Shown: piece after piece, positions 6,656-32,982 of the stretch
Position numbering within the stretch: position 1 is the stretch's first letter
How the letters are laid out: each line of letters begins with the position of its first letter
Assembly: GCA_002335605.1 (NCBI GenBank)
Contig: BEDY01000015.1
Location: 141,917 to 205,916 of the forward strand
DNA length: 64,000 nucleotides
Source: Prillingera fragicola
Lineage: Eukaryota; Basidiomycota; Tremellomycetes; Trichosporonales; Trichosporonaceae
Direction: 5' to 3'
Notes under the pieces: model-generated
What the model was told of the DNA's origin: nothing
The model's input: the letters and a program-made list of their open reading frames with translations, nothing else
Database searches by the model: none
Position numbers and translations under genes: made by a program

Positions 6656-8491
6656 TGCTCAATTGGCAAACTATGTGAGTATTAGCATATGCCAATGCAG
6701 CATCCGGGCGCGATAGGGGTCGGCGTGGTCGCGCGATGCGAAACCAGTGGTAGTGGTCGTCGTCGAGCACCATGCTGACCCCCGGAACTTGTTGTATGGG
6801 GGCTATTGCTGACGGACAGTCCGAACGTCCGCGACACGACGCCATGGCACAAGGACAAGGGTCGGCTCAAGCTCGACTTGTGAGTTGACTACCCCAAGGA
6901 CCAGGGCTGACGACAGCTTTCTGAGTATCATCTTTGTGGGCATGATCCTCAATGGATGTACGTCCTGACGATCACTGCGGCTCAAACACATACTAACTGG
7001 CAGACGATGGAAGCCTTATCGCCAGTCTCCAGGCCTTTGATGCCTGGCACGTAGACCTTGGCCTGACTGACACGAACCCGCGCACCTCTGCTCTCATCGG
7101 TCTGCTCAACGCTGCTGGTCCTATTGCCGGATTCGTCATTGGGCCCGTCATCCAGCACATTGACGACACCTGGGGCCGCCGTTGGGGCATCCGATGTAAG
7201 TCTTGGCGCCGCAGCCAGTCGCTGACCTTCAGTCTACGGCTACACGATTGTCCTCGGTACCGTCATCTCGTGCATTGCCGGCATCGACGGTCTCCGCGAG
7301 TCCAACGGCTATGCCATGTTTGTCGTTGGTCGCTTCTTCATCGGCTTTGGCCTCGCGTCTTTCCTCATGACGTCGCTCGTCGTAGTTCAGGAGATTACGC
7401 ACCCACGCTCGAGGTCGATTGTCGCCCAGTCGTGGAACTCGTACTACATTATCGGCATGGTCATTGCGTCGTGGACCACTTTTGGCACGTCGTTCATGTC
7501 TGGTTCCTGGGGCTGGCGTCTGCCATACATCCTGCAGCTGCCGTTTGCCGTCTACATCCTCATCGCGGTTCAGTTTGTGCCCGAGACGCCTCGCTTCCTT
7601 ATAGCCAAAGGTCGCCACGACGAGGCCCTCCGCTTCCTCGCCGACTACCACGGCAACGGCAACCCTGACGACCCCCTCGTTCGGTTCGAGTTTGAAGAGA
7701 TGAAGGAGGCCCTCAGCGCCGAGCGCATGGCCAAGGCTGAAAAGTGGAGCGTCGTCCTCCGCGGCCGCGCCAACCAGCGCCGCCTCAGCCTGGCCGTTCT
7801 CATGTCGTTCCTCACGATCATGTCTGGGTCGTCGCTCATCTACTACTACTACTCGATCATCTTTACCAGCGTCGGCATCACCGACACGACCACGCAGACA
7901 GGCATCAACGCCGGTCTGTCCGTGTTCACCTGGTTCTGCCAGATCGCAGCAGTCTTCACCGGCCGCCGCGTGGGACGCAAGTCCATCCTTCTCGCCACAT
8001 GGCCTATCGTCCTCCTGGGTCTCGTCGGCATGTGCGTCTGCGGAGGCATGTACGAGCGCAGCGGCGAGACGGACAACAAGTCGGCCGTCGCCACGGTCGT
8101 GCTAGTCTGGATCTACCTTGGTACCTTCAACTTTACCAACCCGGTCCTGTACTCGTACCCGGCCGAAGTGCAAACGTTTTCCATGCGCTCAAAGGGTCTC
8201 CTGGTCTGGAACTTTAGCCAGCAAATCTTCAGCATCTACGTTACGTTTGTCGACGCCATTGCCCTCAACGCCATCGGGTACAAGTACTACGCCGTCTACA
8301 TGCCTCTGGTCATCATCCAGTGGTTCCTTGTCTACTATTTCATGGTCGAGACGCGTGGGTACACCCTTGAGGAGGTCGCGCTCGCCTTTGACGGTGAGGG
8401 TGTCGACTCGTTTACACCTATGCGGACCAATGGCGCGCCCGAGGGCATTGCCGAGGGAGCCGCGACGCCTGTGGACCACAAGTGGGACTAA
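6656..8491 (+). CDS. MFS sugar transporter (LAC12/hexose type)
   Basis: A proton-coupled or facilitative sugar importer of the plasma membrane. Exons: 6656-6675, 6820-6879, 6917-6957, 7004-7195 and 7233-8491, total about 523 residues, the usual family length. The N-terminal signature SPNVRDTTPWH-like stretch, NGYDGSLIAS after helix 1, DTWGRRWG, PETPRFLIAKGR after helix 6 and VETRGYTLEE near the end are the sugar-porter landmarks; about 12 hydrophobic segments are visible. The start exon (MLNWQT) was chosen because its GTGAGT donor gives the right phase. Alternatives at 6639 or 6736 need poorer donors. The family also includes lactose, cellobiose and xylo-oligosaccharide carriers, so the substrate is open. 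It sits upstream of the glycosidase cluster. Confidence 0.88.
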
Positions 8492-8905
8492 GTGTTGTGG
8501 GCTGTGCGGCCTCGTCTCTGCGACACTTTCCCTCTGGCACAGTGCCCTGCCCCTTATGGCTGCCATTGTTCATACCCCAATGCAACCTTAATTGAACACT
8601 TGATGCGGCACACTAGCTCGCGACTGACATGGGACCGGATGATGAAGGCGCGAGTACAGTGGGTGGTGGATGTGGGAGTGGCGGCCAGTCGAAGATTGTG
8701 GCAAACTGATTAATGCGAGATGTTAGTCCAAGACACCACCCATCACGATGCCTTCTGAACCATCAAGCACTGATCACGCAGAGCTCCAGCTGATTCCTCG
8801 CTGTTCATTTTCTATTCGTAATCATGAGAGCCGGCGTAAACAAAACTCAGTCACAGAGACCACCACAGCCTACCACGATCATGCCGCACAACTTACCAGC
8901 AGTCA
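8492..8905. other. convergent intergenic region
   Basis: Lies between the stop codons of the transporter and the proline-rich gene. Nothing recognisable beyond probable 3' UTRs. Confidence 0.4.
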
Positions 8906-9670
8906 CTAACGAGTTCCCCACCTATTCCACCTCTCCCTCTCCCTCTCCTCATACATCTCCGCCCACGTAGCACCCGCAATCCGGGCCTCACGCATCCTCC
9001 GCCTCACATCCCGGTCATACTCCCTCCCATCCCTCCCCTCCGCCCCAGAGAGACAGTGCAAGCCCAAATTATTCGTCCCCCTCGTCCCATTCGTCACAAC
9101 AGACCCCCCCTCGGAGTCTCCAGCATAGCTATCCCGGGACGCCGGAAGCAGCGAACCGTCGCTCCGCCTGGACGCACCAGCATACAGGCTCCGCTGGTCG
9201 GAATCGGGCTCAGGCGAGGGACGCGGGCGCGGCGGCGTTGGCAGACGCGGGTGGGTGGGTTTGTGGCCCTCGGCGTGCGCGGGTAGCCAGGTTCTGGGGG
9301 GTGCCCGGGGGGTGGCGTCGGGATCGGGGGTGGGTGCGCGGGGTGGGTGGTGGGGTGTGGGTGGTGGAAGGGTGGTGGGGTGTTGGATGTAGGGGGTTAT
9401 GTAGGGGTTGTCGTAGGGCGCGTACGGGGGTGGGTATGGGTTGGCGGGGTAGTAAGGCTGAGGGTACATGTGGTTCATGTCCCAGGGGGGCTGCTGTTGA
9501 GCTGTAGCGTTAGGTTCTGTGCCAGGCGGGATGAGGTGCTTACGACAGTTGAAGCCTGGGTAGAGTAGAGTAGGTTTGCGGTTGTACTTCTCATAGTATG
9601 GGCGGTAGGTGTGGAAAAGCGGAAAGCCTATCATGTTCAACTTGAACTTTGGGTATTCTTCGGGAGCCAT
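8906..9670 (-). CDS. unrecognised proline/arginine-rich protein
   Basis: Exons 9544-9670 and 8906-9501, about 240 residues. The 42-nt intron (9502-9543) keeps the frame, but its GTAAGC donor, CTAACGCTACAG end and the local intron style make splicing likely. The N-terminal third is conserved-looking (MAPEEYPKFKLNMIGFPLFH, then YYEKYNRKPTLLYPGF), the middle is Pro/Tyr/His-rich low complexity, and the C-terminal 50 residues are highly charged (RRRMREARIAGATWAEMYEE). No signal peptide or membrane segment. I do not recognise the family. A TATTTAAG word lies about 60 bases upstream of the ATG. Confidence 0.6.
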   Translation of the reverse strand: MAPEEYPKFKLNMIGFPLFHTYRPYYEKYNRKPTLLYPGFNCRKHLIPPGTEPNATAQQQPPWDMNHMYPQPYYPANPYPPPYAPYDNPYITPYIQHPTTLPPPTPHHPPRAPTPDPDATPRAPPRTWLPAHAEGHKPTHPRLPTPPRPRPSPEPDSDQRSLYAGASRRSDGSLLPASRDSYAGDSEGGSVVTNGTRGTNNLGLHCLSGAEGRDGREYDRDVRRRMREARIAGATWAEMYEERERERWNRWGTR

Positions 9671-11033: not shown

Positions 11034-12877
11034 CTACAGCTGCGGCAAGGCAACACCGTCACCGCGATAATCAGTTCCAGCCGCCCAGACCCTCCTGCCA
11101 GTCCTCTGGTCGACGGTCCTCACAATAGCCTGCCCCTTTCCGAACAACACACTGTCACGTCCACCAATAACTTCAATCCTGTGGCCCATCTTCTCCAGCT
11201 CGGCGAGCACATCCGCAGGAATGCCCGCTTCGACCGCAACGCTCTCGTTCCAGTACTCCTGGTGCTTGGCCCAGTTGAAGCCCCCGACGCAGAAGCGTTT
11301 CATGTCGAGCGCCAGCTGCGGCGTACGTTTCTTGTGCAGCATGTTCCTGCTCTCTGTCAGCCCCTTCCCAAGCCTGTACTGCGGTACGCACATGAGAACC
11401 TGCACCTGGCCCTGCGGCTGCATGCATCCGCCCATGACGCCGTAGCTCATCGCCAGCTCGTCGCCCCGTGTGACCATCGCGGGGATGATGGTGTGGAACG
11501 GCCGCTTGCCGCCCTCGAGCACGTTTGGGCTGTTCTCGTCGAGAGAGAATGCGCCGCCGCGGGACTGCAGGGTAAAGCCGCAGTCGTTGGGGACGATCGC
11601 TGTGCCAAAGCCGAGAAAGTTGGACATGATGACTGCAGTGTCAGCTTTGGGCGGTGCACGCGTACTTACATGAGATCGAGTTGCCCTCCGAGTCGGCAGC
11701 GCAGAGGTAGACCGTGTCGCCGTTTGGCAGTGGCGAGCCCTGGTGGATCTGCGCCACGGCCTTTTGAGGCTGGAACAGCGCGGCACGTTTCCGGAGATAC
11801 TCCTTTGACAGCAGCTCGTCGACTGGAACCTTGACAAACTTGGGGTCGCCGACGAACGCGTGCACGTCGGCGAACGCGAGGCGGATAGACTCAATGAGCG
11901 TGTGGTACCACGCCGCCGAGCCCTCCTCGATGTCGTCGAGGTTGACAATGCCGTCTTCACGGAGCACGTCGAGGATGCCCAGCGCGATGAGCGCGGCAAT
12001 GCCCTGGCCGTTGGGCGGGCACTCCCACACGGTGATGTCGTTGGCGTAGGTGTACGAAATCGGCTCGACAATGTCGGAAGTGTGTGCGGCCAGGTCGGCG
12101 AGGGTCATGATACCACCACGCGAAGTGATGGCTTGCACGATCGCCTCGGCCACGCGCCCCTCGTAGAAACCCTTCTTGCCGTGCTCGCCAATCGACCTCA
12201 GCGTCTTGCCGAGCGCAGGGTTGGAGAAGAACTGGCCGGGAAGCGGAGCGTGCCCATCAATGAGCATGGGGTAGTTGTCGCCCGACTGGGGCTCGGCAGC
12301 GACGCGCTGGAGCAGTGCCTCGTGCTCCCTCCACTCGGACGACGACATCTGGTGAATCGCAAACCCGCCCTCGGCAAGCGAGATTGCTGGCGCGAGCACG
12401 TCAGAAAGCGAGACTTTGCCGGAACCGAATTCTGCATGAATATCGACGAGCGCGGCGGCGGCGCCGGGGACAGTCACGGCGTGGACACTGTCGAGGGGAA
12501 TCTTGCGGCCGGTGAGGCCGAACTCGCGCGCTTTGGCGAGGTTGAAGTCCTTGGCTGCGCGGCCAGAGCCATTGAGGGCTCGGACTGTTTTGGCTTTGGC
12601 ATCCCAGAATAGGGCAAAGGCGTCGCCGCCGACACCGCAGTTAACCGGCTGGAGTGTTAGGACGCGCCTGACGATGGGCAAGAGGACTTACCTCGGTCAC
12701 GTTGAGGGTCGCGGCCATGGCGACAATGGCATCGGCGGCATTACCACCCGCACGGAGGATGGAGAGACCCGCCTCGGATGCGAGCGGCTGCGAGCAGCAC
12801 ACGACTCCCTTGGCCGAGTAGACGGTTGAGCGGCGCGAGCTGGCCTCGTAGCGGTCGCGGTCAAAGTTGTGCGGCAT
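11034..12877 (-). CDS. gamma-glutamyltransferase family protein (YwrD-like)
   Basis: Gamma-glutamyltransferases cleave or transfer the gamma-glutamyl group of glutathione and related amides after autocatalytic processing at a conserved Thr. Exons 12692-12877, 11670-12648, 11392-11632 and 11034-11346 give 572 residues, a full-length family member. Visible landmarks are the N-terminal [29 protein letters not shown], the processing site NGDTVYL with Thr near 374, [19 protein letters not shown] (made by splicing at 11633-11669), and the [13 protein letters not shown] substrate loop. No signal peptide, so it is more like the cytosolic YwrD-type enzymes than the vacuolar or secreted ones. The introns are 43, 37 and 45 nt. 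Confidence 0.92.
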
Positions 12878-17678: not shown

Positions 17679-18785
17679 ATGCCAGCAACGACCCGTCTGA
17701 TGGACAGAACCCACAATGGCAGCTATGGCCTACGCTCTCGCTCCGTCCCCAAAAACCCTCGTAATCTCACCCCACGCAAACGACCTCGCACCAGCGCACC
17801 ATCTCTCGAGATCAAACAGCTCTTCGACCACGCCTCCTTTCCGCACCTCCTCGACCAGATCATCTACCACTCGGCACAGTCCCAGCGCAACATTCTCCGG
17901 CAGACGTCACACGCAGTGCGTGCCATTGTAGACGCCTACGAGGTCACCCAGCTGTGCCTCCACGAGCCCAACGCGGCAGCGGACAAGCAGGCTACCGCTC
18001 CAGTGCTGTGCGGATACAATGACACGCCTCCGGAGCACCTCTTGTCAGCTTTGAGCAAGACGCAAACCCTCGACGTCTTTGGCGTGGGCCACACACGCGC
18101 CATGCAGATAATTGCACTTCGCGCTCCAAACCTCCGCACTGTGCGGCTGGTCCCGAGCCGTACAGGCCAGACAGTCGAGCATACGACCCCCTTCGCCGCC
18201 CCGAGGCTCGTCGTCGTCACCACTCCGTGCACCACCGCCGCTGTGCCGCACACCTACACCAGACCAAACTCTTCAGTCCAGAAGCTCGTCTACAACATCT
18301 GCCTCCCAGCAGAGATCAACCCGGCCGTTGCACAGGTGAGGGCGTGGGCCCGCGGCAAGGCGCTGCGCGAGGTGGTCATCATCATCGACTGCCAGTTGAA
18401 CGACCACACTCCCTCCGACGTGGGCGAGCTACCCCCACTCGGCTTCCTGAACACTGTCGCTCGTGCAGTCATCTGTGACCTCGGCACCACAACCGTGACT
18501 TTTGTCAACCTCCTCGCCCTCCCCCCGTCCTACCTCGGACTACCAGCGGATACACCACCGCCAAACGGCCTCAAGATGGTACGCAGCGCCTTCCGCCAGA
18601 TCATCAAGGAGGGCCACGGGACGCTGTGCAACGAAGCCCCAGAGATGGAGATGCAGGACGAGGTGGACCGAATCGGGTTCTTGACTTTGGAAGAGTACAA
18701 GGCTAAAGTCGGCGAGGAGAGCTTCCGCCTCGAAGCTGTGCACTGCGGTGTCATTGACGGTATAGAGGTTCTGACGACGCTGTGA
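17679..18785 (+). CDS. unrecognised F-box/LRR-like protein
   Basis: Single exon, 368 residues. The start is the first ATG of the frame, in good context after a C/T-rich leader. After a basic N-terminus (SYGLRSRSVPKNPRN) comes LFDHASFPHLLDQIIYHS, which resembles an F-box-type helix, then alternating hydrophobic segments of the kind seen in degenerate leucine-rich proteins of basidiomycete yeasts. The C-terminus has an acidic EMQDEVDRIGFLTLEEYKAK segment. The general architecture (N-terminal FPH..DQI helix, a T-V-T-F-V-N/D-L strand near the end, a final FLT/FVT-EEY/REY segment) is shared with the minus-strand protein at 19173-20345. No catalytic motif; possible substrate adaptor, but no function is claimed. 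Confidence 0.6.
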   Translation: MPATTRLMDRTHNGSYGLRSRSVPKNPRNLTPRKRPRTSAPSLEIKQLFDHASFPHLLDQIIYHSAQSQRNILRQTSHAVRAIVDAYEVTQLCLHEPNAAADKQATAPVLCGYNDTPPEHLLSALSKTQTLDVFGVGHTRAMQIIALRAPNLRTVRLVPSRTGQTVEHTTPFAAPRLVVVTTPCTTAAVPHTYTRPNSSVQKLVYNICLPAEINPAVAQVRAWARGKALREVVIIIDCQLNDHTPSDVGELPPLGFLNTVARAVICDLGTTTVTFVNLLALPPSYLGLPADTPPPNGLKMVRSAFRQIIKEGHGTLCNEAPEMEMQDEVDRIGFLTLEEYKAKVGEESFRLEAVHCGVIDGIEVLTTL

Positions 18786-19172: not shown

Positions 19173-20345
19173 CTAAGCCCACGGCGACCTCCTCCACCAC
19201 TTGGCCCTCCCACCCACGGGCCCGGGCACGAGTTTGATCTCACTGGGATACGCCTCCCTCCCCGCCTCACCGCCGACCTCGCGCTCGTACTCCCTACGCG
19301 TAACAAACTTGATCCCAGCAACGACGCGTGCCCCCGCCGTATCCCCCGCAGGCAGGAGGCGCTGAATCGTCACACGGACGTGTGCTTCCGTTTCAGCCTG
19401 GGACATGGCCCTCTGCCCGAGCGCTGCGGCGGGGGGGAGGTCGACGAAGGTGATGCTCGTCAGGTGGTGGGCGTCCCGGGCTGCCTGGCGGGCGAGCTCG
19501 GTTAGGATGCCCAGTGGCTGCAGAGGGTGTTTGTCGGTGGCGGGCCACACGCCGACAAAGACGACTACGAGCTCTGTGATACTCTCGCATGGCTCTGTGG
19601 CGGGGATGAAGGTGGTGGGATTCGTGTAGTCGTTTAGGGCAATGTTGAAGACGAGCCTCTGTGTGCCGTCGCGCGGCGCCACGCGCGAAGCCGGGTTGGA
19701 GTGGAATACCCCCCTGATGACCAGCGAGGGCGCGACGACCGGCGGAGACGCATGGAGAGTCCCCGAGAGATCGGGAAAGAGCCTTACGCAGGCGAGGACT
19801 GGGGTTAGGTCGCTAAACCAGTCCTTGGGCGGGTAGGCGCCTACAAAGGACATGGTACGGGTGGCTGTGAGTGCGGCGCGCGCCCGGGCGTTGACGCCTC
19901 CGTCGCTGGTAAAGGTCGCTTTGGGGGAGAGGCAGGGGTGCCATATCGGGCCCACCCTTTTGATGTAGGGGGCATACACGACAAGATAGTAGGCCGATTT
20001 GAGGTCAATGTAGGTGCAGGTTTGGCGTGAGAGGAGGCGGAGCTTGTCCAACTCCCGTGGGCTAAAATTGCTGAGAATTTGGGCAAAGATGTGCGGGTAG
20101 AATTCATGGTCGATTATGGCGAGTGGCTGTGTGGGTGAGTTGGCACTTTGTCTGGGGCTGAACTGGCAGAGCTGGCGGTTTGGAAGCAACCAAGGAGCAA
20201 ACCGTTTCGCTGAAAAGTATGCAATCGCAATGGCAAAGACCGTTTCGAGGACGCGGACGGCGACCTGTATGGCAAAGATGAGGAGCGTGCTGTCCAATTT
20301 GTCCCATAGCGTGTAGGCGTCGGGTAGATGGACTGTCCGGTTCAT
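19173..20345 (-). CDS. unrecognised F-box/LRR-like protein with N-terminal membrane helix
   Basis: Single exon, 390 residues from the first ATG (MNRTVHLPDA). Residues about 18-40 form a hydrophobic helix (LLIFAIQVAVRVLETVFAIA), suggesting membrane anchoring. It is followed by EFYPHIFAQILSNFSPRELD, an F-box-like helix, and repeated short hydrophobic segments. Late motifs HHLTSITFVDLPP and IKFVTRREYEREV correspond in position to TTTVTFVNLLALPP and IGFLTLEEYKAKV of the plus-strand neighbour at 17679-18785, so the two are probably divergent paralogues. The last 25 residues are Gly/Arg/Trp-rich. A TATATAA lies about 60 nt upstream. Confidence 0.6.
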   Translation of the reverse strand: MNRTVHLPDAYTLWDKLDSTLLIFAIQVAVRVLETVFAIAIAYFSAKRFAPWLLPNRQLCQFSPRQSANSPTQPLAIIDHEFYPHIFAQILSNFSPRELDKLRLLSRQTCTYIDLKSAYYLVVYAPYIKRVGPIWHPCLSPKATFTSDGGVNARARAALTATRTMSFVGAYPPKDWFSDLTPVLACVRLFPDLSGTLHASPPVVAPSLVIRGVFHSNPASRVAPRDGTQRLVFNIALNDYTNPTTFIPATEPCESITELVVVFVGVWPATDKHPLQPLGILTELARQAARDAHHLTSITFVDLPPAAALGQRAMSQAETEAHVRVTIQRLLPAGDTAGARVVAGIKFVTRREYEREVGGEAGREAYPSEIKLVPGPVGGRAKWWRRSPWA

Positions 20346-20491: not shown

Positions 20492-23232
20492 TTATCGTTC
20501 TCCCTCGGCAATGCCTTCGAAATCGAAATCATCCCAGTTCCACCAATTCGCCAACTACGCGTCAGACCTGTGCATGCGACAGCACTTACATTATTGCCAG
20601 GGTTGGACTGCAAGATTGTCGGATCCCAGAACTGCTGCAACTTTTGCCAGTCAGCCCTCCTCCCTCCGTAACACGAAAACACTCACCAACATATCCGTAC
20701 TCGTGTCATCCACAGGCAAGCTGACCTGCGGCGACACGCTAGCCCCACTCCGTGCACTCCCGGGATTACTAATCGTGACCACCCCCTTGCCACGCTCGAC
20801 CAGCCGGGTCCTCCATCCAAGCAGCTCGGCGTCGTCCTCAATTTCCTCATAGTCGTCTCCCCTGTGATCCAGGCCGCCTGCGTGGGCGACTTTGGCAGCA
20901 GCCCGGCGCCGAAGCTTTACGAGCCACTGCCAGTTGACCCCGGCGTCACCCGCGGGGTCACCCTCCGCTACCCGCTTGTATGTGGCTATGGCCAGGTCGA
21001 GCTGGCTGAACGCCAGCGGTACGAGCGGGCAGGTGGGTGCTTTGAGCAAGGTGGAAGCGACGCAGACGGCTGCAGTGAAGAGGTGATACCAGAAGAACCA
21101 GTGGCGGGCGGCCAGGGTTGGGAAATGCGTTTGGAGAGAGGAGACTACTTGGATCGTGATCTGGCGTCAGCCATGCGTATTGTGTACACTCACGTTGCAG
21201 CGTTCCATTACCGCCAGGTAGGACCTGGCGTAGAGCCCCCGAGCGGGGTCAGCCGGGTTGGCATGCAGGGCTCGCAGGAAATATGGTCGTTGCAGAAAGA
21301 GGATTGTTTCCGAAATGTTGACAGCGAGAGCGTATTGCTGAAACGTCCGGTGTAGGTTCCTCCTGTTGACCTCTGGCGACGCTGCTATGGCGGCCGCGGC
21401 GTCCGGATAGATGGACGGCATGGCTTGAAGCGCTGCGCGACACCGCAGCGCGTGTGGAATGGAGCCTTCAAATGTTATAAGCCTGTCGTAGAGATCTGTC
21501 ACTGCTGTGTAAGATTTGGGCCGGACGTCCATTGCGTGCTCCAGGACACTGCCATCAGCTCACTCCACAGCGACTACTCACTCTCCAGACAAGCGGCACA
21601 GCTCGTACTTTAAGATCTTGAAGCTCTTGACCCCACTCGGCCCATCAAGATAGCTCTGGCCGGGGAAGAGTGTGTCTATATGCTCTGGCCTGAGCGTACA
21701 CGGCCGTGAAAAGCAATTGGCCTGAAAGACATCAATAGTGTGGCTTTCCCAGAACACATGGCGGCGTTCCTCTGCCACATCGGGAGGCAGACCGAAGCGT
21801 TCCCCGTCCCGGTGCAGACCCATAGCGACTACTAGCCGCATTGCCAGTCCCCAGAGAGGCCACGCTGCGTCGCCCTCCCTGCGGTCGGAACGGTAGTGGC
21901 CCATGAGAATGAGCGCTTGCACAGCTGGGAGGCGGGCCGTGACGAGAAAGCTCCCGCGGACGAGAGATCTTTCAGCTAGAGTCATGAACGCGTCGCCGCT
22001 CGCCGCTGCGTCTGCGGGTGGCAGATCGGGGGAGTGGAGAGTTCCCATGGCTAGGATGGCAAAGATGAGGCCCAAGTCCTGCGGGTCTGCGCGTGACGTT
22101 GGCGAGGTGAAGAGGGAGGCGTAGGTTCGGTCGAGAATTGGTTGAAAGGCCCTCCGGGGCGCGACATCATGGCTTTTGTGTCAGCAGTTGTAGAAGAGAA
22201 GATGAGGTTGCTCACTTCCAGGTGTAGTAACGATAATACGAGTCGACGAGGACCGAAGCTTCGTCCCCTGGCGGGAGGGCTGCGATGAGTTCGTCTAGTG
22301 AGGTGGTGGACCGGCCATGGCCAAACGGAAACTGCGACTCTTGCCCATGGGTTGGTAAAACTTGCGGACCCGGTGACGGAGATCGCGATGGCGTTCCGGA
22401 GAGTGTCTCTTGCTGTCCCGTCAGTGAGGCCGCCACAGAGAACTCACATCTTTGAGCCATTCTGTGCCAGCCGTGGGACCAAGCCACTTGCTTCGTCCAC
22501 TGCGAGTGATGACGAGTGTGCCGTGACTCTCATCGTCCAGAGGATTGTTCTCGACCACATGTTGCTGCATCGAGTTAGATGAAGGCAGGCCTACTGGTGT
22601 GTCGTAGTTGAAGTGAACACTGGATGGTCCTACTGGGCTGGCTGGGATGTAAGGCTCCTCATTTGTAGTGTCGTGATACTCGACAGCAGGTTGTGTTCCC
22701 CCTGCTGGTGGTGATACCAAACTGGATACCGAATTGTCAACTTGAGGAACACTCGGGCTCCGCCTGGTTCGTTTTCTCTGAGGCTCGTCTGACTGCCCTG
22801 TAGCATTTGGCCCGGGTGATGCCACCAGCCCAGACAGCGATTCGAGGCTGACAGCCCCACCAGCAGCCGCTTGCAAAAAGTTCTCCACGGTAGCGAGACG
22901 AGCACGTAGCTCTGACACTGTTTCCGACTCGTCACTGGCACAGTGAGTGATATCTCCAGTGGCGAGGGCTTACGGTTTCCGGACCTTTACGCCATTAGGA
23001 CACAGGTGGTCACACCCGCGGCGTGTGCAGTTGTTGCATGGGACTGCATGTCAGCAGTGCTATACGGTATTGCCGCCAACTGCGACCTCACAGACTCACC
23101 TTGCTTGTCACACTTTAGTTTCAACCGATGACACTCTGGTCCAAATCAGCTCCACACCAATAATATCACCGACTGCAACTTACCAGCACAACTGATCAAC
23201 TTGTTTGCACGTTTCTTCTCCCTCGTAGTCAT
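20492..23232 (-). CDS. Zn2Cys6 fungal transcription factor
   Basis: A binuclear zinc cluster regulator with a fungal-specific middle homology region. Ten exons: 23184-23232, 23100-23135, 22974-23043, 22448-22934, 22216-22412, 21582-22172, 21194-21548, 20687-21160, 20590-20640 and 20492-20554, about 790 residues. The zinc cluster is rebuilt only across the first three exons: Cys15, 18, 25, 31, 34 and 39, with the CNNCTRRGC spacing and CPNG ending common in basidiomycetes. A short coiled coil follows (SELRARLATVENFLQ). The middle region has YYRYYTWNHDVAPRRAF, AMGLHRDGERFGLPP and RRHVFWESHTIDVFQA. The end is WWNWDDFDFEGIAEGER, typical of this class. It sits among glycosidase and dehydrogenase genes and its promoter carries a 17-nt palindrome (23367-23383), so it is a candidate local and self regulator. 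Confidence 0.93.
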
Positions 23233-23587
23233 GATCTCCTGATGTCTTCCTCTCCTATCAGCGGGCATGGCTGTTTGTGTGTGCGTGTAATGGGTGAGTG
23301 AGAGAGTGGGAGAAACAGACGGCCGATGGAGTACAGTCCCCTATCAACGGAGTGGGTGAGTTTAAGAGTCCGATGATCGGACTTTTTACCGGAATAGCAT
23401 TTGGATTAGGATTAGCCATTCAGATGCACTTTGATTCCATTAGAGAATGTTCTAAGCTCAGAATAGTTTATCCAGAGTTCACCCATCCGAGTTGGAGGCG
23501 AGGTCTAACTGCTGGAAAGGGGACATCAAGAAAGAATTCGTACTTTCCTGCATGACCGACATTCTCATGTTACACCTCTAGCAACGA
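23233..23587. other. promoter of the transcription factor
   Basis: Contains the 17-nt palindrome at 23367-23383 and ATTAGGA at 23405-23411. The part next to 23588 also serves as the 3' flank of the downstream oxidoreductase gene. No coding capacity supported. Confidence 0.5.
23367..23383. promoter_or_regulatory. 17-nt palindrome, candidate autoregulatory site
   Basis: AGTCCGATGATCGGACT is a perfect inverted repeat with 8-bp arms around a central G. It contains CCG-N5-CGG and lies 135-151 nt before the ATG of the Zn2Cys6 gene. The same outer half-sites AGTCCGA/TCGGACT recur at 33069-33091. Confidence 0.5.
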
Positions 23588-24817
23588 CTACTGACCAGCC
23601 GTCCCCTCGAGATTCCTCAACAACGTCTTGCCCTCCTTCCTGACCCCATCAAACCACGTCTGCACAATCCGGCTCTCCTCCAAACTCATCCTCTCACTCT
23701 CTAGCTTGCCATCCCGGATACACCGCGCGACCTCGTCGGCCTCGTACGCCAAGCCGTGGCACACATCTGCGGGAATGGCGTGGTGGTACGTCTTGGCCTC
23801 GACCCCCTGCGATCCAGCATGCGGGACGACGTGGAACGTGTGCGGCTTTTGCGGGGGGAACTCGATGACGAGGTCGGCGTTCTCACACTGCATCACGGCA
23901 GTAGCCTGCGGGAGGCCGTGGCAGGTCATGTCCGTCATAAGACTCGCCTCGGCGCCGAGCTCTTCAAAGTCGAGCAGCCACCGCGAGCGCGCGTCCACCT
24001 GCGTCGGCTCGTAGATGCGCTGATACGTGTTGACGAGCTTTGGCGGGGTGCGCTGCGTGTTGAGCGGGTGCTGGTGCAGACACAGCATGGCCCACACACT
24101 CGGGTAGGGGGCCATGTCGAGCAGGGATCCGCCGCCGAGGGCCGGGTCGAGGAAGCGGTCAGACAGAGGCCGGTTGGCTACCTTGAAATCAATAGAAAAG
24201 TCGGCCTGGAACCGCTTCGGCTGGCCGAGGACGCCAGAGGCGATCACGTCCTGCACAGCGTACGAGATGGGGTGGAAGCGCGTCCACACTGCCTCCATGA
24301 GAAAGAGCTTCTTCTCCTTGGCAATAGCCACGAGCTCGTCCAGCTCGGACACGTCGAGGACGAATGCCTTTTCGCACAAGACATGTTTGCCAGCCAGCAA
24401 CGCCGCTTTGGCGTCCTTGTGGTGGTGCGTCACGGGCGTGCCAATGTAGATAATGTCCACGTCCTGCTGTCAGCAGCAGTCCACACGCATCACTCACGGG
24501 ATGGTCGTACACCTCCTGGTAGCTCCCAGCAGCGACGGTAGCATCAAGCATGCCGCGCTGCACGCCCCACTTCCAAATGTCCCCATCTTTAGCACCCTTA
24601 AGGCCGTCGATAAACTTTTGCGCACTCGCGACAGACCGCGAGCCGACGGCAGACACGACGTGCTGCACGTCCGACACGGAGCGCTTGGACGGGTCGACGA
24701 GCAGGTCCTGGCTGGTCAGCTGCGATACGCTGGCGGACCCACCTTTGTAAAGTCGGTCGCGATCTGGCCGGTGGAGATGATTCCCCAGCGGAGCTGGAAG
24801 GGGGTGCTGACGGTCAT
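23588..24817 (-). CDS. Gfo/Idh/MocA oxidoreductase, D-xylose 1-dehydrogenase / dihydrodiol dehydrogenase type
   Basis: NAD(P)-dependent dehydrogenase of the family that includes fungal NADP-dependent D-xylose dehydrogenase and mammalian dimeric dihydrodiol dehydrogenase. Exons 24743-24817, 24498-24707 and 23588-24463 make 386 residues, the family length. The Rossmann motif is RWGIISTGQIATDFTK near residue 9. DIIYIGTPVTHHHKDAKAAL and LCEKAFVLDVSELDELV form the cofactor/substrate region, where EKA replaces the usual EKP. FLMEAVWTRFHPI and GGGSLLDMAPYPSVWAMLCL are typical for the xylose/dihydrodiol group. No signal peptide. The context of xylan-degrading enzymes favours oxidation of xylose to xylonolactone, but this is inference. 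Introns are 35 and 34 nt. Confidence 0.88.
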
Positions 24818-24874: not shown

Positions 24875-24947
24875 GATGCTTGGGGACCACCGTGTCCGTG
24901 GACGGAGGGTGGCTCGGAGTGATGATGTGCTGGCCCGAACTGCCGGT

Positions 24948-24957
24948 CCGATCTCGG
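24948..24957. promoter_or_regulatory. CCG-N4-CGG candidate binding site
   Basis: CCGATCTCGG, 131-140 nt before the oxidoreductase ATG. It is the exact reverse complement of CCGAGATCGG at 33079-33088 upstream of the second Gfo/Idh/MocA gene. Confidence 0.4.
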
Positions 24958-25232: not shown

Positions 25233-26842
25233 TTACTTTTTGATAAGATACTCAAACATCCTCTTCAACGCCCCCGAACTGTCCTTTGCCCGGCGCGTAA
25301 ACTCGGGACTACTGCGGTCGACAACAGTGAGCCCAAAGCGGGGCACATAGCCCATGATCCACTCGAGGTTGTCCAGCAGCGACCACGCCATGTATCCCCC
25401 GACAGCGATACCGTCGTCCCGCATAGCGAGCACCATTTCACGTACGTACCCCGCGTAAAACGCCTGGCGCTGCGTGTCGTTGATCTGCTCCTCGACGGTC
25501 ATCTCCGACTCGCCGTCGACCGCGAACCCGTTCTCGGTAATGTAAATCTTCTGCCCAGCTGGGCCGGTGTAGCGCTCGGCGATGTATTGCAGCAGCATGC
25601 GGAATCCCCACGCGCAGTCGTACGGGTGCCCGTTCTGGCCCTTGTTGCCGATAGGCTTGCCGTCCTTGGTCGTCGTGGACTCGATGAGGCCAAAGATGCT
25701 GTCCCGCGCGTTGGCTGTGGCAGGGTCTTGGCGCTTGCCCGTCGCGTAGCTCGTCGAGTAGTGGTTGAGGCCAAAGCTGGGTCTGTCAGTCTGGGTACCG
25801 CTGCAGAGCACGTACTAGTCGTTGGAACCCTTGACCACGGCCCACTCCTCGTCGGTGAAAGTGAGCTTGTCGGCGCCAAAGCGGTCGATGCAGCTCTGGG
25901 GGAACTTGCCGAGGTCTGGCGTGTTAGCTCGCCCATACAGCAGCCAGGAAGACTCACAGATAGGGTCGGCGTACATGCCCAGCCTCTGGTCCATGCCGAT
26001 CTGCGTCGCGGCCTTGGCCTCGGCCGAGTCGTCAAGGGGGACAAGCATGTCCATGTTCTGCAGCGTCAGCTTGCAAGAAATACTGCCCAGCATGGCCGAC
26101 TCACGAGGGTGATGGCAATCTGGCCCTTTTGCTGATCCTGGAACTCGCGGCGGTACAGATCAACCGTGCGGCCATGGCAAAGCAGGAGGTGACGCGAGTA
26201 AGCCGCATGCACGTCGTCCGTCCACGTCTCCTTCTTCATGGCCAGGCCGTTGAGCAGGGTGTAGATGAGGGGCTCGTTGATGGTGATCCAGTACTTTACG
26301 CGGTCGCCGAACCGCTCAAACAGCAGCTTGGCGTACGACACAAAGTCGTCAACAATCTTGGGCGACTCGAACCCGCCGTACTGCTTGTCCAGCTCGTCGG
26401 GCAGGTCCCAGTGGAACAGCGTGAGGACGGGCTCGATGCCCTCGTCGATTAGCGCGTCGATCAGGTTCGAGTAGTACGCAATCCCGGCTTCGTTGACGGG
26501 GTCGTTGGCGCCACCTGGCCGTCAGTATCGCAGCGCGAGGGGGGGCTTACCGATGGGCTTGACTCGCGGCCAGGACACGGAGAACCGGTACGCATTGCAC
26601 CCCAGCGCCTTGAGGAGCTTGATGTCCTCTTTCCAGAGCGTGTAGCTGCCGCACGCGTCGTTGCCGTTCTCCTTGTCGGCAAGGTAGACGTCCCAGTTGC
26701 TCAGACCCTTGCCGTCGGCGTCATGGCCGCCCTCAATCTGGTAGCTCGCCGTCGAGGCTGCGTAGATAAAGTCTGACGGGAGCGCGCCCTTGAGACTGGC
26801 GTCGGCGGTGATGAGCTGTTCTGGGGCGGTGGATGTGGTCAT
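25233..26842 (-). CDS. GH1 beta-glucosidase, intracellular
   Basis: GH1 enzymes hydrolyse beta-glucosides such as cellobiose, and some also beta-galactosides or beta-xylosides, with retention. Exons 26551-26842, 26105-26514, 25958-26057, 25816-25915 and 25233-25776 give 481 residues, the normal GH1 length. Landmarks are DFIYAASTASYQIEGGHDAD near residue 25, NAYRFSVSWPR, TLFHWDLP, the acid/base in WITINEPL (Glu about 178), FGLNHYST rebuilt by splicing, the nucleophile in YITENGF (Glu about 382) and GYMAWSLLDNLEWIMGY. There is no signal peptide, so it should act on imported sugars. Introns are 36-47 nt. Divergent from the GH43 gene across 1.2 kb. Confidence 0.94.
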
Positions 26843-28008: not shown

Positions 28009-28069
28009 ACCATACATCGACTTCCAACACCCCCACACTCGTTTCCCCACTCACAACACTCACAACACC

Positions 28070-29176
28070 ATGCCGGAGCCCCTCGTCACCCACATCTACA
28101 CCGCCGACCCGTCCGCGCACGTCTTTGACGACCGGTTCTACGTCTATCCCTCACACGACCGCGAGACGGACATTCAGTTCAACGATAATGGTGCGTCCGA
28201 AGCCATGTCATGCGTGCCCCCAGCGGCACGCCTGCCTCCTCCCCTTCTGTATCCGCGGCTAACCTCCCAGGCGACCAGTACGACATGGCCGACTTTCACG
28301 TCCTCTCCCTCGCCGCCCCCGGCGAGCCGGTGACGGACCACGGCGTCGCGCTGCGCGTCGAGGACGTGCCCTGGGCGAGCAAGCAGATGTGGGCCCCGGA
28401 CTGCAACAAGGGCCCCGACGGGAGGTACTACTTTTACTTTCCCGCCAGGGACCACGAGGGTGCGTCCTCCTCTGCACTGCAAGCAGCGCTGCAAGCTAAC
28501 ACGAGCAGGCATCTTCCGTATCGGCGTCGCGATCTCGGACAAGCCAGAGGGACCGTTCACCGCCCAGCCCCAGCCGATCAAGGGGTCCTTCTCCATCGAC
28601 CCGGCGACGTTTGTGGACGACGACGGCGCGGCGTACATGTACTTTGGCGGGCTGTGGGGTGGCCAGCTGCAGTGCTACAACACGACGGGGACCGAGTACG
28701 ACGCGTCCCAGATTGGCCCGCACGAGCCGAGCGGCCCCGGTGCCAAGGCCCTCGGCGCGCGTGTGGCGCGGTTGACAAAGGACATGCTCGAGTTTGACGA
28801 GGAGGTGCGCGAGCTCCTCATCCTCGACGCGGACGGGTCGCCCGTCGCTGCCGACGACCATGAGAAGCGGTTCTTTGAGGCCGCGTGGATGCACAAGCAT
28901 AACGGGACTTACTACTTTTCCTACTCGACTGGCGACACGCATTTGCTCGCTTACGCTACGGGTCCCACGCCTTATGGACCGTTTACGTACGGCGGCACGA
29001 TCCTCGAGCCGGTGATTGGGTGGACGACGCATCACTCTATTGTCGAGCACGAGGGCCGCACTTGGTTGTTCTACCACGACTGCGAGCTCAGCAAGGGTGT
29101 CAACCACTTGAGGAGCGCAAAGGTCCGTGAAATCTTTTACGACGACCAGGGCAAGATTATTCCCCAGAAGCCGTAG
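28070..29176 (+). CDS. GH43 beta-xylosidase / alpha-L-arabinofuranosidase, intracellular
   Basis: GH43 enzymes act on xylo-oligosaccharides and arabinosyl side chains with inversion. Exons 28070-28190, 28271-28459 and 28509-29176 give 325 residues, a compact single-domain member. The catalytic base lies in YTADPSAHVFDDRFYVYPSH near residue 13, the pKa-modulating Asp in SIDPATFVDDDG and the general acid Glu in RFFEAAWMHKHNGTYYFSYS. WTTHHSIVEHEGRTWLFYHD is the late conserved block. No signal peptide. Substrate (xylose or arabinose) cannot be decided from sequence. The gene ends 29 bp from the stop of the opposing GH36-like gene, so the two mRNAs must overlap at their 3' ends. Confidence 0.92.
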
Positions 29177-29205
29177 GGTTGTAGTACAGTATATGCATGT
29201 AGTGG

Positions 29206-31630
29206 CTAGTGGATGTGCACAGCGACGTCCCAGGTGTTCTTTTTCGTGGTCGGTATTGATGCTTCGGCACCAACGTCCATCTCCAGCAGCCATGCACCCC
29301 GGCCCTTGTCCGCTGACAGAGGCTGGACGCGAACATGTAGCTCTGCCCCGTCCGCCCTTGCCGTGACTTTAGGTTGCTGGGGAGCTACGTAGAGCACGCC
29401 CAGGACACCGGCATGTGTAACGGCGACGCTTACTTGTGCTCACTGTCAACACAGGCCCTACGGGAGACAAACTCACAATCATCGACTTTTACATTCTTGA
29501 CCCCAAACACCCCCGCAAGCTTATCCACCAGCCCGAGCACGCCGACAAGCCCTCTCGGGTGCGTGTGAGCGCTGACGACCCAGAAACTCCTGCACCCCCC
29601 TTGCGGGAGAGTGAACCGGCCGAGCTCTCCCTCATCCCCCTTCTCCAGGACAGCCTCCACACCAACGTGGTGACCCTCGTTCAAGGCGTCGACGCTAGCG
29701 ACAATCCACGCCGCGTCCCACATCGCAGGACCCAGCACGTCCTCCACGTCTGTGGTCGTGAGCACATCCTCGACGTCCCCGGTCGGCTCCTCCACTTCCT
29801 CCAGGTCGTCCTCCGCATCAACCAGAATCCAAGGGGACCACGGCGCGCCATCGCTGTCCGTCACCTTTTCGCCAGTTGTGGTCACATTCCACACGCCCAG
29901 GACACCGCGCGTGTCGTGCTCAGTGGTCTGACTCGTACCAGCCCAGAGAGCCGGGCCTGTAGTGACATTGTCAAAGAGGCGGCGTGATAGCGGCTGCACG
30001 GCTGTGGGCGCGCGGAGGGGCCGAAAGGTGCCTGCCTTGGTCTTGGCGATGAGGGTGTGCAGAAGGGCAAGGTCGTGGGTACCGGGTTTGTCAGACAGGA
30101 CGACTGGGCCCGGCGTGAGTGCGCGCAGCAGCGCATGCGCATGCGGGTGCTTGTCCTGGGGTGCGGTTGCAAACATGTCGGCATCTGGCACAACACACAG
30201 ACCTGACGACAACATCGAAGAGAGCAGAACGGTCATGATCTGATAAGCATGCCCGTCTGCGCCGCCCATGTTGAAGTCGTCAGACACACGCCACACGTAT
30301 CGCTGGCCCTGCGTTGCAAATCCGAGCCCCGTGAGGCCGCCAAAAGTCGCCTCCTCGTGCGCCATGCAGTGGATCACTCTCCCAGGTCCAAAGGTCTCGT
30401 CTGCAGCAAGCGTCATTGCTGCCCAGTTAATGTCGGCTACCTTTTTGCCCTCATGGGGTGCAAGGGAGAAGAGTGCAGCTTGGTGGTCGACCTTGACAAA
30501 GGTTACGCCCTGAGCGTGGAGAGACTTGAAGTAATCGAGCCAGAAACGTCGAGCGTCCTCTGGGGGCGGGACAGTGTAGTTTGGCATATCGGGCCAGGCG
30601 ATGCCGGGCCAGTCGTCGTTGTTCCGCGGGTAGGCAACGCAGTTGTATTTCTTGACCAGCGGCGACTCGGGGTGGATACCTTCCCAGTAGCCTCCTGTCA
30701 ATCTTCTGTCAGCGACTGTCGGAGCGAGTACTCACGCAACCCAGACGCCGACCTCGCACTTGCCGACACCCTGGACGTCCTCCAGCCTCGCCTTGATCAT
30801 CTCGACTGCCCCCGCCAGACCCTCCGGCCCCATGGCCTCGGCCGCGCCAAAGCTCCACAGCCCGCGTCGATCGTCCCCAGCAAGTGGAAAGTCGCGGTAG
30901 TCCTGCCATCCGTCATCGATGATAAACGTCTGCACTGGAATCGCATGCTCGACGAGGTCGTCAACAAGCGAGCCCAGATTGGCCTGCGTGGGGTGCGTTC
31001 CTGCATGTCAGGATCGAGCTGCAAAAGCCCAAGCCATACCTTCCCCCAACGCTGTCCAAGTACACGTCCCGAGCCCATCAAACGGGCTGTTGCGCGGCGA
31101 GCTGAACTCTGGCACTTCGCTCCCGGCCCCGATCCACTTCTTCCCCTTGGCCACACACTCTGGAATCAGTCGACCAGCCGCCTCTAGGTCCTCGGCTGGA
31201 CACCGCGCAACACTCAGCATAGCATTGACGATCTCGGTGGACCCCCGGCGGAGATGGACCTTGAGTTTCCCCTGCGCGTCACGCTGGAGGTTACACAGCC
31301 CCCCGCCGGACACGGGGTAGATTGCCATAATCTCGCTACCAGTGTGTAGTAGAAGCAGATGAATCGAATACGCTTCTAGGTCGAGCATGCTGGGCAGCCA
31401 GCGGGGCTGGATCCACCACGGTCTGGCGGGTTAGCAGCCGATGGGGGTGGAACTTGCTTTGAGCGATACCATGCCCAGCCTTTGCTGTCTGGTGGGATGT
31501 CAAAGGGAAAGGGGAATGACGAGTCGAATGTGTTTGCTGTGAGAGTGTACTTGTGGGCTTGTACAGCGATTGGCATGATGGACGGTGAAGAGTGTTGTTG
31601 CAAGTATGCGATGACATGGGGTCTGGGCAT
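29206..31630 (-). CDS. GH36 family raffinose synthase / alpha-galactosidase-like protein (SIP1 type)
   Basis: The family hydrolyses or transfers alpha-galactosyl groups of raffinose-type oligosaccharides. Exons: 31454-31630, 31040-31406, 30736-31000, 29477-30702 and 29206-29432, about 753 residues. Landmarks are PVQTFIIDDGWQDY, GVWVALTGGYWEGI (rebuilt across a 33-nt intron), VTFVKVDHQAAL with the likely nucleophile Asp, YVWRVSDDFNMG with the likely acid/base Asp, and SGLCVVPDADMFAT. Two points are uncertain. The N-terminus could start at 31576 instead of 31630. The last splice (donor at 29476) has two possible acceptors, and reading through gives a stop at 29430. No signal peptide. Same strand as the next oxidoreductase gene, 170 bp downstream of it. 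Confidence 0.88.
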
Positions 31631-31800
31631 GAGACAAGCGGTAGACAACCTGGTTGCCGGGTTCTCGGCATTCTACATCGCCAGCCACATCTCGAACTGT
31701 TGCTCACTGCTCAGCTAATCTGCAAGCGCCCGTGGCTCGTGTAGCTGGCATGCTGCAGCGAACACATACAGGATGACTCCCCAAGATCAATGCATGCAAT

Positions 31801-32982
31801 CTAAACAACAGGCTCCCCAGCCTCATCAAACGCCACAGCCCGCCCAAGCCTAAAGCTAGCAGTCAACCCCTTGGCAATCTGCGCGGCCACAAGCGCATCC
31901 CTTGCACTCGTAGGCACAGCAGTGTCGTCAAGCACACAGTCGACAAACGCCTCGGCTTCACGGACGAACGCGTCGCCGAAGCGGTCCATATAAGTCGGCG
32001 GACCGGTGACCCGGCGTCCCTCGGCATCGGCGATCTGCACCGCCGATCCGGCGGGTGTACCGACTGTGCACTTTTGCGCCAGGCCGTAAACCTCTACGAG
32101 CGACTCGTAGCCGCTCATGCCAGTGCGGCTGAGGTGGAGCGTCGCCGACGTGCCGTTGCGGAACTCGATGATGGCGAGTGCATTGTCGCAGTCGTCCTGC
32201 TCCGCCAGCTCGGGGTGTGCCGCAAGCAGACCCGACGCAAGCACACGCTTGACCTCGCCGCGTCCTGCCGAGGTCGTGTTGAGCAGCCACCGCGCCATGT
32301 CAATGTCGTGGATGCCGCAGTCCATGAAGATGCCCCCCGAGGCTTTGGCGTACTGCACAAAGAAGCCTGTGCTGTCGTAGGCATCCTGCGTCGTCGACTT
32401 GAGAATGTAGGGTGCTCCGTCCTTTTGGGCTGCGGTCGCAATGTGCCTCTGCAGCTCCTGGAAGGCTTTGTCGACTTGTTGTCAGCCTTGGTCGGCGAAC
32501 GAGACTTACAACGACGGACAAAGCCAATCATAACCTTGACACCCTTCTGCTCGGCGACCTCGGCGGCCTCAACGACTGGGCGGGAGGCCTCGACGTCGAC
32601 CGAGATGGGCTTCTCAAGCAACACATGCAGCCCCTTGGCCATGGCCGCAAGCGCAAGCGGCGCATGCGTGTCTGTGGCCGTGGAGATGATCACAGCCTCG
32701 AGGCCCGGATGCTCAAACGCCTCCTCTGGCGAGGTATAGTACTGGACGCCGGGGAGGTAGCTGGCCACCCACTTGGCTGCGGCGGGTGAGGGGTCGGCAA
32801 TAGCTACGAGCTCGGCGCGGGCGGTGCGTGCCAACTGGGCTTGTCAATGACTGACTGAGAGACTACAGTAGCGACCTTACATTGTAAGCGTGCCGCTGGC
32901 CCATGCGGCCACAGCCGAGGACGGCAATCTTGAGTTTGCGGGCTTGGAGGGTTTGGGTCATGCCGGCGTGGTACTGGTTCAT
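31801..32982 (-). CDS. myo-inositol 2-dehydrogenase-like oxidoreductase (Gfo/Idh/MocA)
   Basis: NAD-dependent oxidation of myo-inositol or a related polyol/sugar is the typical reaction. Exons 32881-32982, 32510-32834 and 31801-32474 give 366 residues. The Rossmann motif KIAVLGCGRMGQRHAYN is near residue 18. AVIISTATDTHAPLALAAMA and VLLEKPISVDV follow, with the catalytic-region Lys in EKP. MIGFVRRFDKAF is rebuilt by splicing, and GGIFMDCGIHDIDMARWLL carries the conserved D-x-x-x-H-x-x-D pattern of inositol dehydrogenases. No signal peptide. The promoter has a TATA palindrome and the AGTCCGA/TCGGACT sites. Introns are 46 and 35 nt. Confidence 0.9.

What the first reader, a model, noticed from the sequence alone, without database searches (positions are those of the whole stretch)
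6656..32982. Hemicellulose/oligosaccharide utilisation gene cluster with its own regulator
Within about 26 kb sit a sugar transporter, a secreted GH115 alpha-glucuronidase, a Zn2Cys6 regulator, a xylose-dehydrogenase-type oxidoreductase, GH1 and GH43 glycosidases without signal peptides, a GH36/SIP1 protein and an inositol-dehydrogenase-like enzyme. Family knowledge supports a route: GH115 trims glucuronoxylan outside, oligomers enter through the transporter, intracellular GH43/GH1/GH36 finish the breakdown, and dehydrogenases oxidise released sugar or inositol. Clustering of such genes is common in bacteria (PULs) but less so in yeasts. The gamma-glutamyltransferase and F-box-like genes inside it do not fit this scheme.
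Basis: partly seen in the sequence, partly recalled or inferred. Interest (0 to 1): 0.75.

Follow-up and report, generated by a model that had tools for sequence, protein, structure and literature searches.

The report
Yeast sugar-oligomer gene cluster, function untested
A basidiomycete yeast carries several plant-sugar enzymes, a regulator and possibly a transporter side by side; this looks like a real small catabolic cluster for short plant-cell-wall sugars, but joint control and the exact food are unproven.

Summary
The genes are real: spliced models and Pfam confirm a sugar-porter MFS, GGT, GH115, a Zn2Cys6 factor, two Gfo/Idh/MocA oxidoreductases, GH1, GH43 and a raffinose-synthase/SIP1 protein between 6.66 and 32.98 kb. 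In this 20.2-Mb Trichosporonales-type genome I found only 2 GH115, 2 GH1, 3 GH43 and 2 SIP1 loci; one of each lies here, so the core (13.5-33 kb) is hard to explain by chance. GH43 belongs with fungal xylosidases; uptake and intracellular hydrolysis of xylo-/cello-oligosaccharides is the likeliest function. Against the proposed route: no GH10 or GH11 match in the genome; no promoter motif beats shuffles; the 'xylose' and 'inositol' dehydrogenases miss curated cut-offs; unrelated genes separate transporter and GH115 from the core; F-box is below threshold. Regulator and SIP1 look like divergent copies whose usual counterparts lie on other contigs, hinting at a lineage-specific cluster. Synteny in relatives could not be tested. 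A plausible cluster of a known kind; moderate interest.

The parts
6655..8491 (+). MFS sugar-porter transporter, 523 aa, 5 exons; doubtful cluster member (border)
   Evidence: Sugar_tr 223 bits; TIGR00879 196 bits, cut-off 237.8; best-scoring other match in the genome 37% identity
11034..12877 (-). gamma-glutamyltranspeptidase, 587 aa, 3 exons; probably not part of the pathway
   Evidence: 411 bits
13463..16563 (+). GH115 alpha-glucuronidase, 999 aa, 4 exons, signal-peptide-like N-terminus (by eye)
   Evidence: solved relatives 4zmh, 4c90
17679..18785 (+). orphan protein 1, single exon, no Pfam match
19173..20345 (-). orphan protein 2, distant paralogue of orphan 1; F-box only E=0.12
20492..23232 (-). 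Zn2Cys6 / Fungal_trans transcription factor, 779 aa, 10 exons (last two small exons are predictor output only)
23367..23383 (.). 17-bp palindrome AGTCCGATGATCGGACT, 135-151 bp upstream of the regulator's start codon; only site reported in the genome with up to 2 mismatches
   Evidence: binding untested
23588..24817 (-). Gfo/Idh/MocA oxidoreductase A, dihydrodiol-dehydrogenase type, 386 aa, 3 exons
24947..24957 (+). TCCGA-N2-TCGG element upstream of oxidoreductase A (weak, post hoc)
25233..26842 (-). GH1 beta-glucosidase-type hydrolase, 481 aa, 5 exons, no signal peptide seen
28070..29176 (+). GH43 xylosidase-type hydrolase, 325 aa, 3 exons, divergent from GH1, no signal peptide seen
29206..31576 (-). 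raffinose-synthase/SIP1 (GH36-type) protein, 712 aa, 6 exons incl. one GC-AG intron; divergent copy
   Evidence: last two small exons are predictor output only
31801..32982 (-). Gfo/Idh/MocA oxidoreductase B, inositol-2-dehydrogenase-like, 366 aa, 3 exons
33078..33089 (.). TCCGAGATCGGA element upstream of oxidoreductase B (weak, post hoc)

Best explanation
The stretch from about 13.5 to 33.0 kb is a small, lineage-specific catabolic gene cluster of a Trichosporonales-type yeast that feeds on short plant-cell-wall oligosaccharides. Shown: gene content, family assignments, rarity of these families in the genome. Inferred: a transporter (the MFS at 6.7 kb or another) brings xylo- and cello-oligosaccharides in; cytosolic GH43 cuts xylodextrins to xylose and GH1 cuts beta-glucosides to glucose; the GH36-type SIP1 protein removes alpha-galactosyl groups; secreted GH115 removes (methyl)glucuronic acid from xylan pieces that other organisms or other enzymes have opened; the two Gfo/Idh/MocA enzymes oxidise a released sugar or cyclitol; and the adjacent Zn2Cys6 factor, a divergent relative of a widely conserved Tremellomycete factor, controls part of the set.
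For: One of 2 GH115, 1 of 2 GH1, 1 of 3 GH43, 1 of 2 SIP1 loci and 2 of 14 Gfo/Idh/MocA hits in the genome lie in 19.5 kb. GH43: best solved relatives are 5glk, 4mlg and 6xn0 (436-401 bits over nearly the whole protein); in the 120 hits listed of 8000 scored, every hit whose name gives an organism is a fungus, 67-74% identical, e.g. 71% to a Neurospora intermedia 'xylosidase/arabinosidase' and 74% to Cutaneotrichosporon sp. HIS471; it pairs with the latter in a tree (94/81, not a starred branch). N. crassa GH43-2 hydrolyses xylodextrins and is described as a putative intracellular enzyme working with CDT-2, and GH1-1 works with CDT-1 or CDT-2 (PMC4338637); that the N. intermedia hit is the GH43-2 orthologue is my recollection. 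Expected catalytic motifs are present in GH1, GH43, SIP1 and the IDH-like protein (meaning of the motifs recalled). The regulator lies outside the clade that holds the C2 copy and the Vanrija genes (100/100), and SIP1 outside the group of the C9 copy and Trichosporonales proteins (88/91, not starred), which fits divergent copies recruited to a cluster.
Against: No shared promoter dyad above shuffles; the palindrome of the regulator promoter occurs once in the genome, so no regulon was found. No GH10/GH11 match. Four GH genes within 18 kb could be chance if the genome has about 250 GH genes (29%). MFS and GH115 are separated from the core by genes with no known sugar role. Linkage in relatives untested. 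No expression data.
Confidence: 0.5

Rival explanations
1. Loose neighbourhood without joint function: ordinary cytosolic and secreted sugar genes that ended up near each other, each controlled separately; the Zn2Cys6 gene regulates something else.
For: No common promoter element (palindrome unique in genome); unrelated genes interspersed (GGT, two orphans); mixed strands; GH clustering alone has p 0.011-0.291 depending on the assumed GH count.
Against: Coincidence of four low-copy families plus two Gfo/Idh/MocA genes; block regulator-A-GH1-GH43-SIP1-B between 20.5 and 33 kb without another gene model except a low-scoring ORF antisense to SIP1.
Confidence: 0.3
2. Two sub-clusters with different substrates: (a) GH1/GH43 with the dihydrodiol-dehydrogenase-like enzyme for beta-linked oligosaccharides; (b) SIP1/GH36 plus the IDH-like enzyme for galactosyl-cyclitols such as galactinol, galactose being cut off and the inositol oxidised.
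For: SIP1 and the IDH-like gene are adjacent on the same strand, 224 bp apart; the only solved relatives of SIP1 found are entries named galactinol-sucrose galactosyltransferase 6 (2 distinct sequences); the IDH-like protein scores best with an entry named 'Dehydrogenase' (3ezy) and then with inositol dehydrogenases, and keeps an IHDxD motif.
Against: SIP1 match is weak (68 bits over residues 155-508); IolG score below cut-off; the other SIP1 locus is on C9, where no Gfo/Idh/MocA hit was found.
Confidence: 0.12
3. One reading: glucuronoxylan debranched outside by GH115, oligomers imported by the 6.7-kb MFS, xylose oxidised by the cluster's xylose dehydrogenase.
For: All components have the right superfamilies; three IlvD/Edd loci exist in the genome, so a sugar-acid dehydratase is possible; Tremellales without GH10/GH11 were reported to use xylan (PMC7147457, passage).
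Against: No GH10/GH11 match; xylose-dehydrogenase model 52 of 350 bits and CEKA instead of the usual EKP (the usual form recalled); transporter isolated from the block.
Confidence: 0.08

Closest known systems
Neurospora crassa cellodextrin/xylodextrin consumption (CDT-1/CDT-2, GH1-1, GH43-2, GH43-7; PMC4338637, passages read)
   Same: sugar-porter MFS plus GH1 and GH43 acting on imported oligosaccharides; the cluster GH43 is 71% identical to a Neurospora intermedia xylosidase/arabinosidase (its identity with GH43-2 recalled)
   Different: the passages read describe a pathway, and the word 'cluster' does not occur in that text; transporter here not shown to be a CDT-2 orthologue; GH115, SIP1, Gfo/Idh/MocA and regulator are additional
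Yeast functional gene clusters, e.g. Pichia stipitis HXT-BGL-EGC and MAL clusters (PMC2784038, passages read)
   Same: transporter and glycosidase genes side by side, divergent orientation frequent, duplicated members
   Different: the cluster rows shown in the passages are mainly pairs or triplets, many around glucosides; here the set is larger and hemicellulose-oriented, in a basidiomycete
Bacterial polysaccharide/hemicellulose utilisation loci (recalled; only listings seen)
   Same: mix of debranching enzyme, oligosaccharide hydrolases, transporter and regulator
   Different: separate fungal genes with introns; no SusC/D or ABC genes seen among the models; no GH10/GH11 match in the genome
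Lactose LAC4/LAC12 and GALLAC clusters (passages of PMC11784187)
   Same: yeast metabolic clusters for a sugar (LAC: permease and lactase side by side)
   Different: single disaccharide substrate and other enzyme families

Membership tests
Fungal catabolic gene cluster | physically linked genes of one pathway, beyond chance | tested here: met
   low-copy families coincide within 19.5 kb; caveat: families chosen post hoc, GH-only test p 0.011-0.291; that they form one pathway is inferred
Fungal catabolic gene cluster | co-regulation by a pathway-specific factor | tested here: inconclusive
   factor adjacent; no shared dyad above shuffles (88 of 120 as good); TCCGAN0-4TCGG at 3 cluster promoters, post hoc
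Fungal catabolic gene cluster | conserved linkage in relatives | not testable with these tools
   genome collections hold prokaryotes; G000 has no relatives here
GH115 xylan alpha-glucuronidase | GH115 catalytic and C-terminal domains | tested here: met
   389 and 151 bits; 4zmh 590 bits
GH43 beta-xylosidase | near full-length match to characterised xylosidases with catalytic residues | tested here: met
   5glk/4mlg/6xn0; motifs ADP, SIDP, FFEA
GH43 beta-xylosidase | intracellular location | not tested
   no signal peptide seen by eye; no predictor run
GH1 beta-glucosidase | GH1 domain with TxNEP and ITENG motifs | tested here: met
   404 bits; motifs at 175 and 380. The NCBIfam BGL model gives 343 bits, under its cut-off of 478.5
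GH36-type raffinose synthase / SIP1 | Raffinose_syn domain with KxD and SDDF residues | tested here: met
   78 bits against 20; VKVD 325, SDDF 396
CDT-2-type oligosaccharide transporter | orthology to CDT-1/CDT-2 | not tested
   no CDT sequence was compared; sugar-porter model 196 of 237.8 bits
NADP D-xylose dehydrogenase | score above a curated xylose-dehydrogenase model, intact EKP | tested here: not met
   52 bits of 350, and that model is haloarchaeal; CEKA
Inositol 2-dehydrogenase (IolG) | score above curated cut-off | tested here: not met
   274 bits of 355, a model made for prokaryotes; motif IHDIDMA kept
F-box proteins (17.7-20.3 kb) | F-box domain above cut-off | tested here: not met
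   none, and 12.8 of 20.5 bits
Glucuronoxylan degradation system | endoxylanase in the genome | tested here: inconclusive
   0 GH10, 0 GH11 matches; exon-by-exon search; GH30, GH5 and others not searched

The most novel reading that the evidence does not exclude
A yeast without GH10/GH11 endoxylanases keeps a lineage-specific, self-contained scavenger cluster: it lives on oligosaccharides opened by neighbours, its regulator and SIP1 enzyme are divergent copies re-purposed for this cluster, and its Gfo/Idh/MocA enzymes add an oxidative branch (sugar or cyclitol). I made no dedicated literature search for such a branch in yeasts.
Probability: 0.2. Interest if true: 0.6.

Novelty: new member of a known kind. 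Interest (0 to 1): 0.38.

Why it matters
If the cluster is co-regulated, it would give a compact, testable model for how a basidiomycete yeast eats hemicellulose fragments, including a candidate pathway-specific regulator, and a parts list for engineering oligosaccharide use in yeasts. It would also show how divergent copies of regulators are recruited to catabolic clusters.

Tried and rejected
Recent bacterial transfer of GH43: rejected as the main idea; every organism-naming hit among the 120 listed is a fungus (67-74%), and the window gene pairs with Cutaneotrichosporon (94/81); GC content of the region is that of the window. Synteny by locus-tag numbers: the best named hit of SIP1 is Vanrija albida Q8F55_007619 and that of the regulator Q8F55_004595, far apart, but these group with the C9 copy (88/91) and the C2 copy (81/80) rather than with the cluster copies, so this says nothing for or against linkage. 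A second copy of the cluster: the other loci of GH115 (C14), SIP1 (C9), GH1 (C7) and GH43 (C7, C12) lie on different contigs or, on C7, about 0.6 Mb apart; their neighbours, judged by eye from predicted proteins without Pfam, showed no such set; GH115 on C14 has a sugar MFS about 1 kb away. Shared promoter motif: CCG-N4-CGG 5 in 5.3 kb against 2 in 13.3 kb of background, best of 75 patterns; palindrome unique; unbiased dyads at shuffle level. First gene models had wrong junctions for GH115, GGT and SIP1 and were corrected. The '~60%' identity of GH43 to bacterial enzymes in my notebook was an eye estimate, never computed, and is not used. Papers: search listings only (1 of 1 shown; 20 of 210; 5 of 5; 5 of 5; 0; 15 of 31; 8 of 8; 7 of 7; 12 of 28); no title shown describes this cluster. 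I read passages, not whole texts, of PMC4338637, PMC7147457, PMC2784038, PMC13059095, PMC11784187, PMC7026411 and PMC5591001; most subscription journals are not held.
Full report
Setting. The window is the last 64 kb of contig C15 (141,917-205,916) of a 20.25-Mb genome in 17 contigs. GC per 2 kb is 0.556-0.625, genes have introns, and near named relatives are Trichosporonales (C2 regulator copy 72% to Vanrija albida; GH43 74% to Cutaneotrichosporon sp. HIS471). I call the organism Trichosporonales-type; the species is not known.

Gene anatomy. A codon-usage and splice-site predictor written here and hand-set junctions give: MFS 6655-8491 (+), GGT 11034-12877 (-), GH115 13463-16563 (+), orphan 1 17679-18785 (+), orphan 2 19173-20345 (-), Zn2Cys6 factor 20492-23232 (-), Gfo/Idh/MocA enzyme A 23588-24817 (-), GH1 25233-26842 (-), GH43 28070-29176 (+), SIP1 29206-31576 (-), Gfo/Idh/MocA enzyme B 31801-32982 (-). 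An ORF at 8906-9670 (-) has no Pfam match. Many introns are only 33-39 nt and one in SIP1 is GC-AG. Pfam confirms the assignments except the F-box ones, with Zn_clus 0.7 bits under its cut-off. The models are predictions without transcript support; the small 3' exons of SIP1 and of the regulator are the least sure.

Is it more than chance? Whole-genome family searches found GH115 at 2 loci, SIP1 at 2, GH43 at 3, GH1 at 2 and 14 Gfo/Idh/MocA hits; the search is exon by exon, so these are lower bounds. The expected number of GH115 copies with the other three families within 19.5 kb is 1.7e-7. Because these families were picked after seeing the region, I also asked how often any four GH genes fall within 18.1 kb: 1.1% for 102 GH genes, 5.0% for 150, 13.4% for 200, 29.1% for 250. 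The figure 102 is 3,567 GH proteins divided by 35 Tremellales genomes (PMC7147457, passage; 99 if the outgroup is counted in); Trichosporonaceae have a highest genus mean of 261 in Apiotrichum (PMC7026411, passage). The GH number of this genome was not counted. Demanding two Gfo/Idh/MocA genes as well gives 1e-6 to 3e-5. So the block is probably not random, but the strength rests on counting the oxidoreductases in. Sugar transporters are too common to add weight (234 first-look candidates, 9 scored; 74 exon-level matches to this transporter, itself included).

What the enzymes are. GH43 aligns nearly end to end with GH43 enzymes of known structure (5glk 436 bits, 4mlg 402, 6xn0 401). The 120 hits listed of 8000 scored are 67-74% identical, mostly 322-341 aa (one of 508), with the one Pfam domain, and every one that names an organism is a fungus; many are unnamed metagenome proteins. 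In a tree of 33 rows (32 of the 120 listed hits, chosen by me, plus the window gene) it groups with Cutaneotrichosporon (94/81, not starred). N. crassa GH43-2 is a putative intracellular enzyme with shown xylodextrin hydrolase activity, used together with CDT-2 (PMC4338637, passages). GH1's nearest solved relatives are beta-glucosidases (8in1 478 bits, 2e3z 380 bits). GH115 matches 4zmh (590 bits) and an alpha-glucuronidase, 4c90 (501 bits); characterised GH115 enzymes range from polymer- to oligomer-preferring (PMC13059095, passages). SIP1 matches a galactinol-sucrose galactosyltransferase at 68 bits and keeps the presumed catalytic motifs (motif meaning recalled). Enzyme A is nearest to dimeric dihydrodiol dehydrogenase (110 bits), as is its C6 paralogue (123 bits); the lysine-proline motif is CEKA in enzyme A. 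Enzyme B is IolG-like but below the curated cut-off (274 of 355 bits). Neither substrate can be named. The transporter's solved relatives are Sugar transport protein 10 and SLC2 glucose transporters at up to 75 bits; it was not compared with CDT-1 or CDT-2.

The proposed route. Xylan use needs chain cleavage. GH10 and GH11 gave no match in the genome. Other xylanase families were not searched, and all nine tested Tremellales strains used xylan though only three had GH10/GH11 (PMC7147457, passage), so growth on xylan is not excluded. I favour uptake of oligosaccharides over complete glucuronoxylan degradation. Three IlvD/Edd loci leave an oxidative pentose route formally open.

Regulation and origin. 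The regulator belongs to a mostly Tremellomycete family (80 proteins at E up to 0.001 among 7,997 candidates). In a 28-row tree (25 of the 80 hits plus three copies from this genome) the C2 copy falls with the Vanrija genes (81/80) inside a 10-row clade (100/100) that excludes the window copy, which sits on a long branch in an unresolved fork. SIP1 shows a similar picture: in a 15-row tree (13 of the 15 hits plus two own copies) the C9 copy pairs with a metagenomic relative (100/99) in a group of six with Vanrija and Cutaneotrichosporon proteins (88/91, not starred), and the window copy is outside it on a long branch; the C9 row has an unusual letter make-up, which weakens this. Closer orthologues may exist outside what the word-based search could reach. 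The 17-bp palindrome 135-151 bp upstream of the regulator's start codon (23367-23383) is the only such site reported in the genome at up to 2 mismatches. A looser form, TCCGA-N0-4-TCGG, has 9 matches in the window against 3.2 expected (0 of 100 shuffles reach 9; palindromic sites count twice, so 7 places), and the three places outside gene models or ORFs are upstream of the regulator, enzyme A and enzyme B. I saw this motif by eye first, so the test is post hoc. An unbiased dyad search over seven promoter regions was no better than shuffles (88 of 120). Co-regulation is unproven.

Comparison. Yeast sugar clusters are well known (at least 35 functional clusters in Pichia stipitis, PMC2784038, passages; LAC/GALLAC, PMC11784187, passages). 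My searches for a cluster like this one (some lists cut) showed no title that describes it; that is not proof of absence. Other loci of these families in the genome are not clustered with each other.

Verdict. Observation confirmed apart from the F-box label; interpretation partly supported: a likely catabolic cluster for short hemicellulose-type sugars, core 20.5-33 kb, GH115 probable, transporter doubtful, GGT and the two orphans likely bystanders. Function, substrate and joint control are inferences.

Noticed in passing
window 31423-31457 and introns of 6.6-33 kb: Introns are very short (many 33-39 nt) and one SIP1 intron is of the rare GC-AG type.
   Followed up: partly
window 17679-18785 and 19173-20345: Two orphan genes are distant paralogues of each other (25% identity) with at most a sub-threshold F-box hint.
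   Followed up: partly
G000 C14:201084-207257 (L009): The genome's second GH115 gene lies about 1 kb upstream of an MFS sugar-transporter gene.
   Followed up: no
G000 C5:920545-925591 (L031): An IlvD/Edd-type dehydratase gene sits next to an MFS sugar-transporter gene.
   Followed up: no
G000 C6:1416171-1419609 (L029): A sugar-transporter gene and a Gfo/Idh/MocA gene stand divergently about 0.5 kb apart.
   Followed up: no
GH43 tree, rows P0047 and P0094: GH43 proteins named as two agarics (Paramarasmius, Mycena) nest inside a group of mostly Sordariomycete rows, which could mean transfer between fungi.
   Followed up: no
window 41867-43562: A pyridoxal-dependent decarboxylase gene (Pyridoxal_deC 311 bits).
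   Followed up: no
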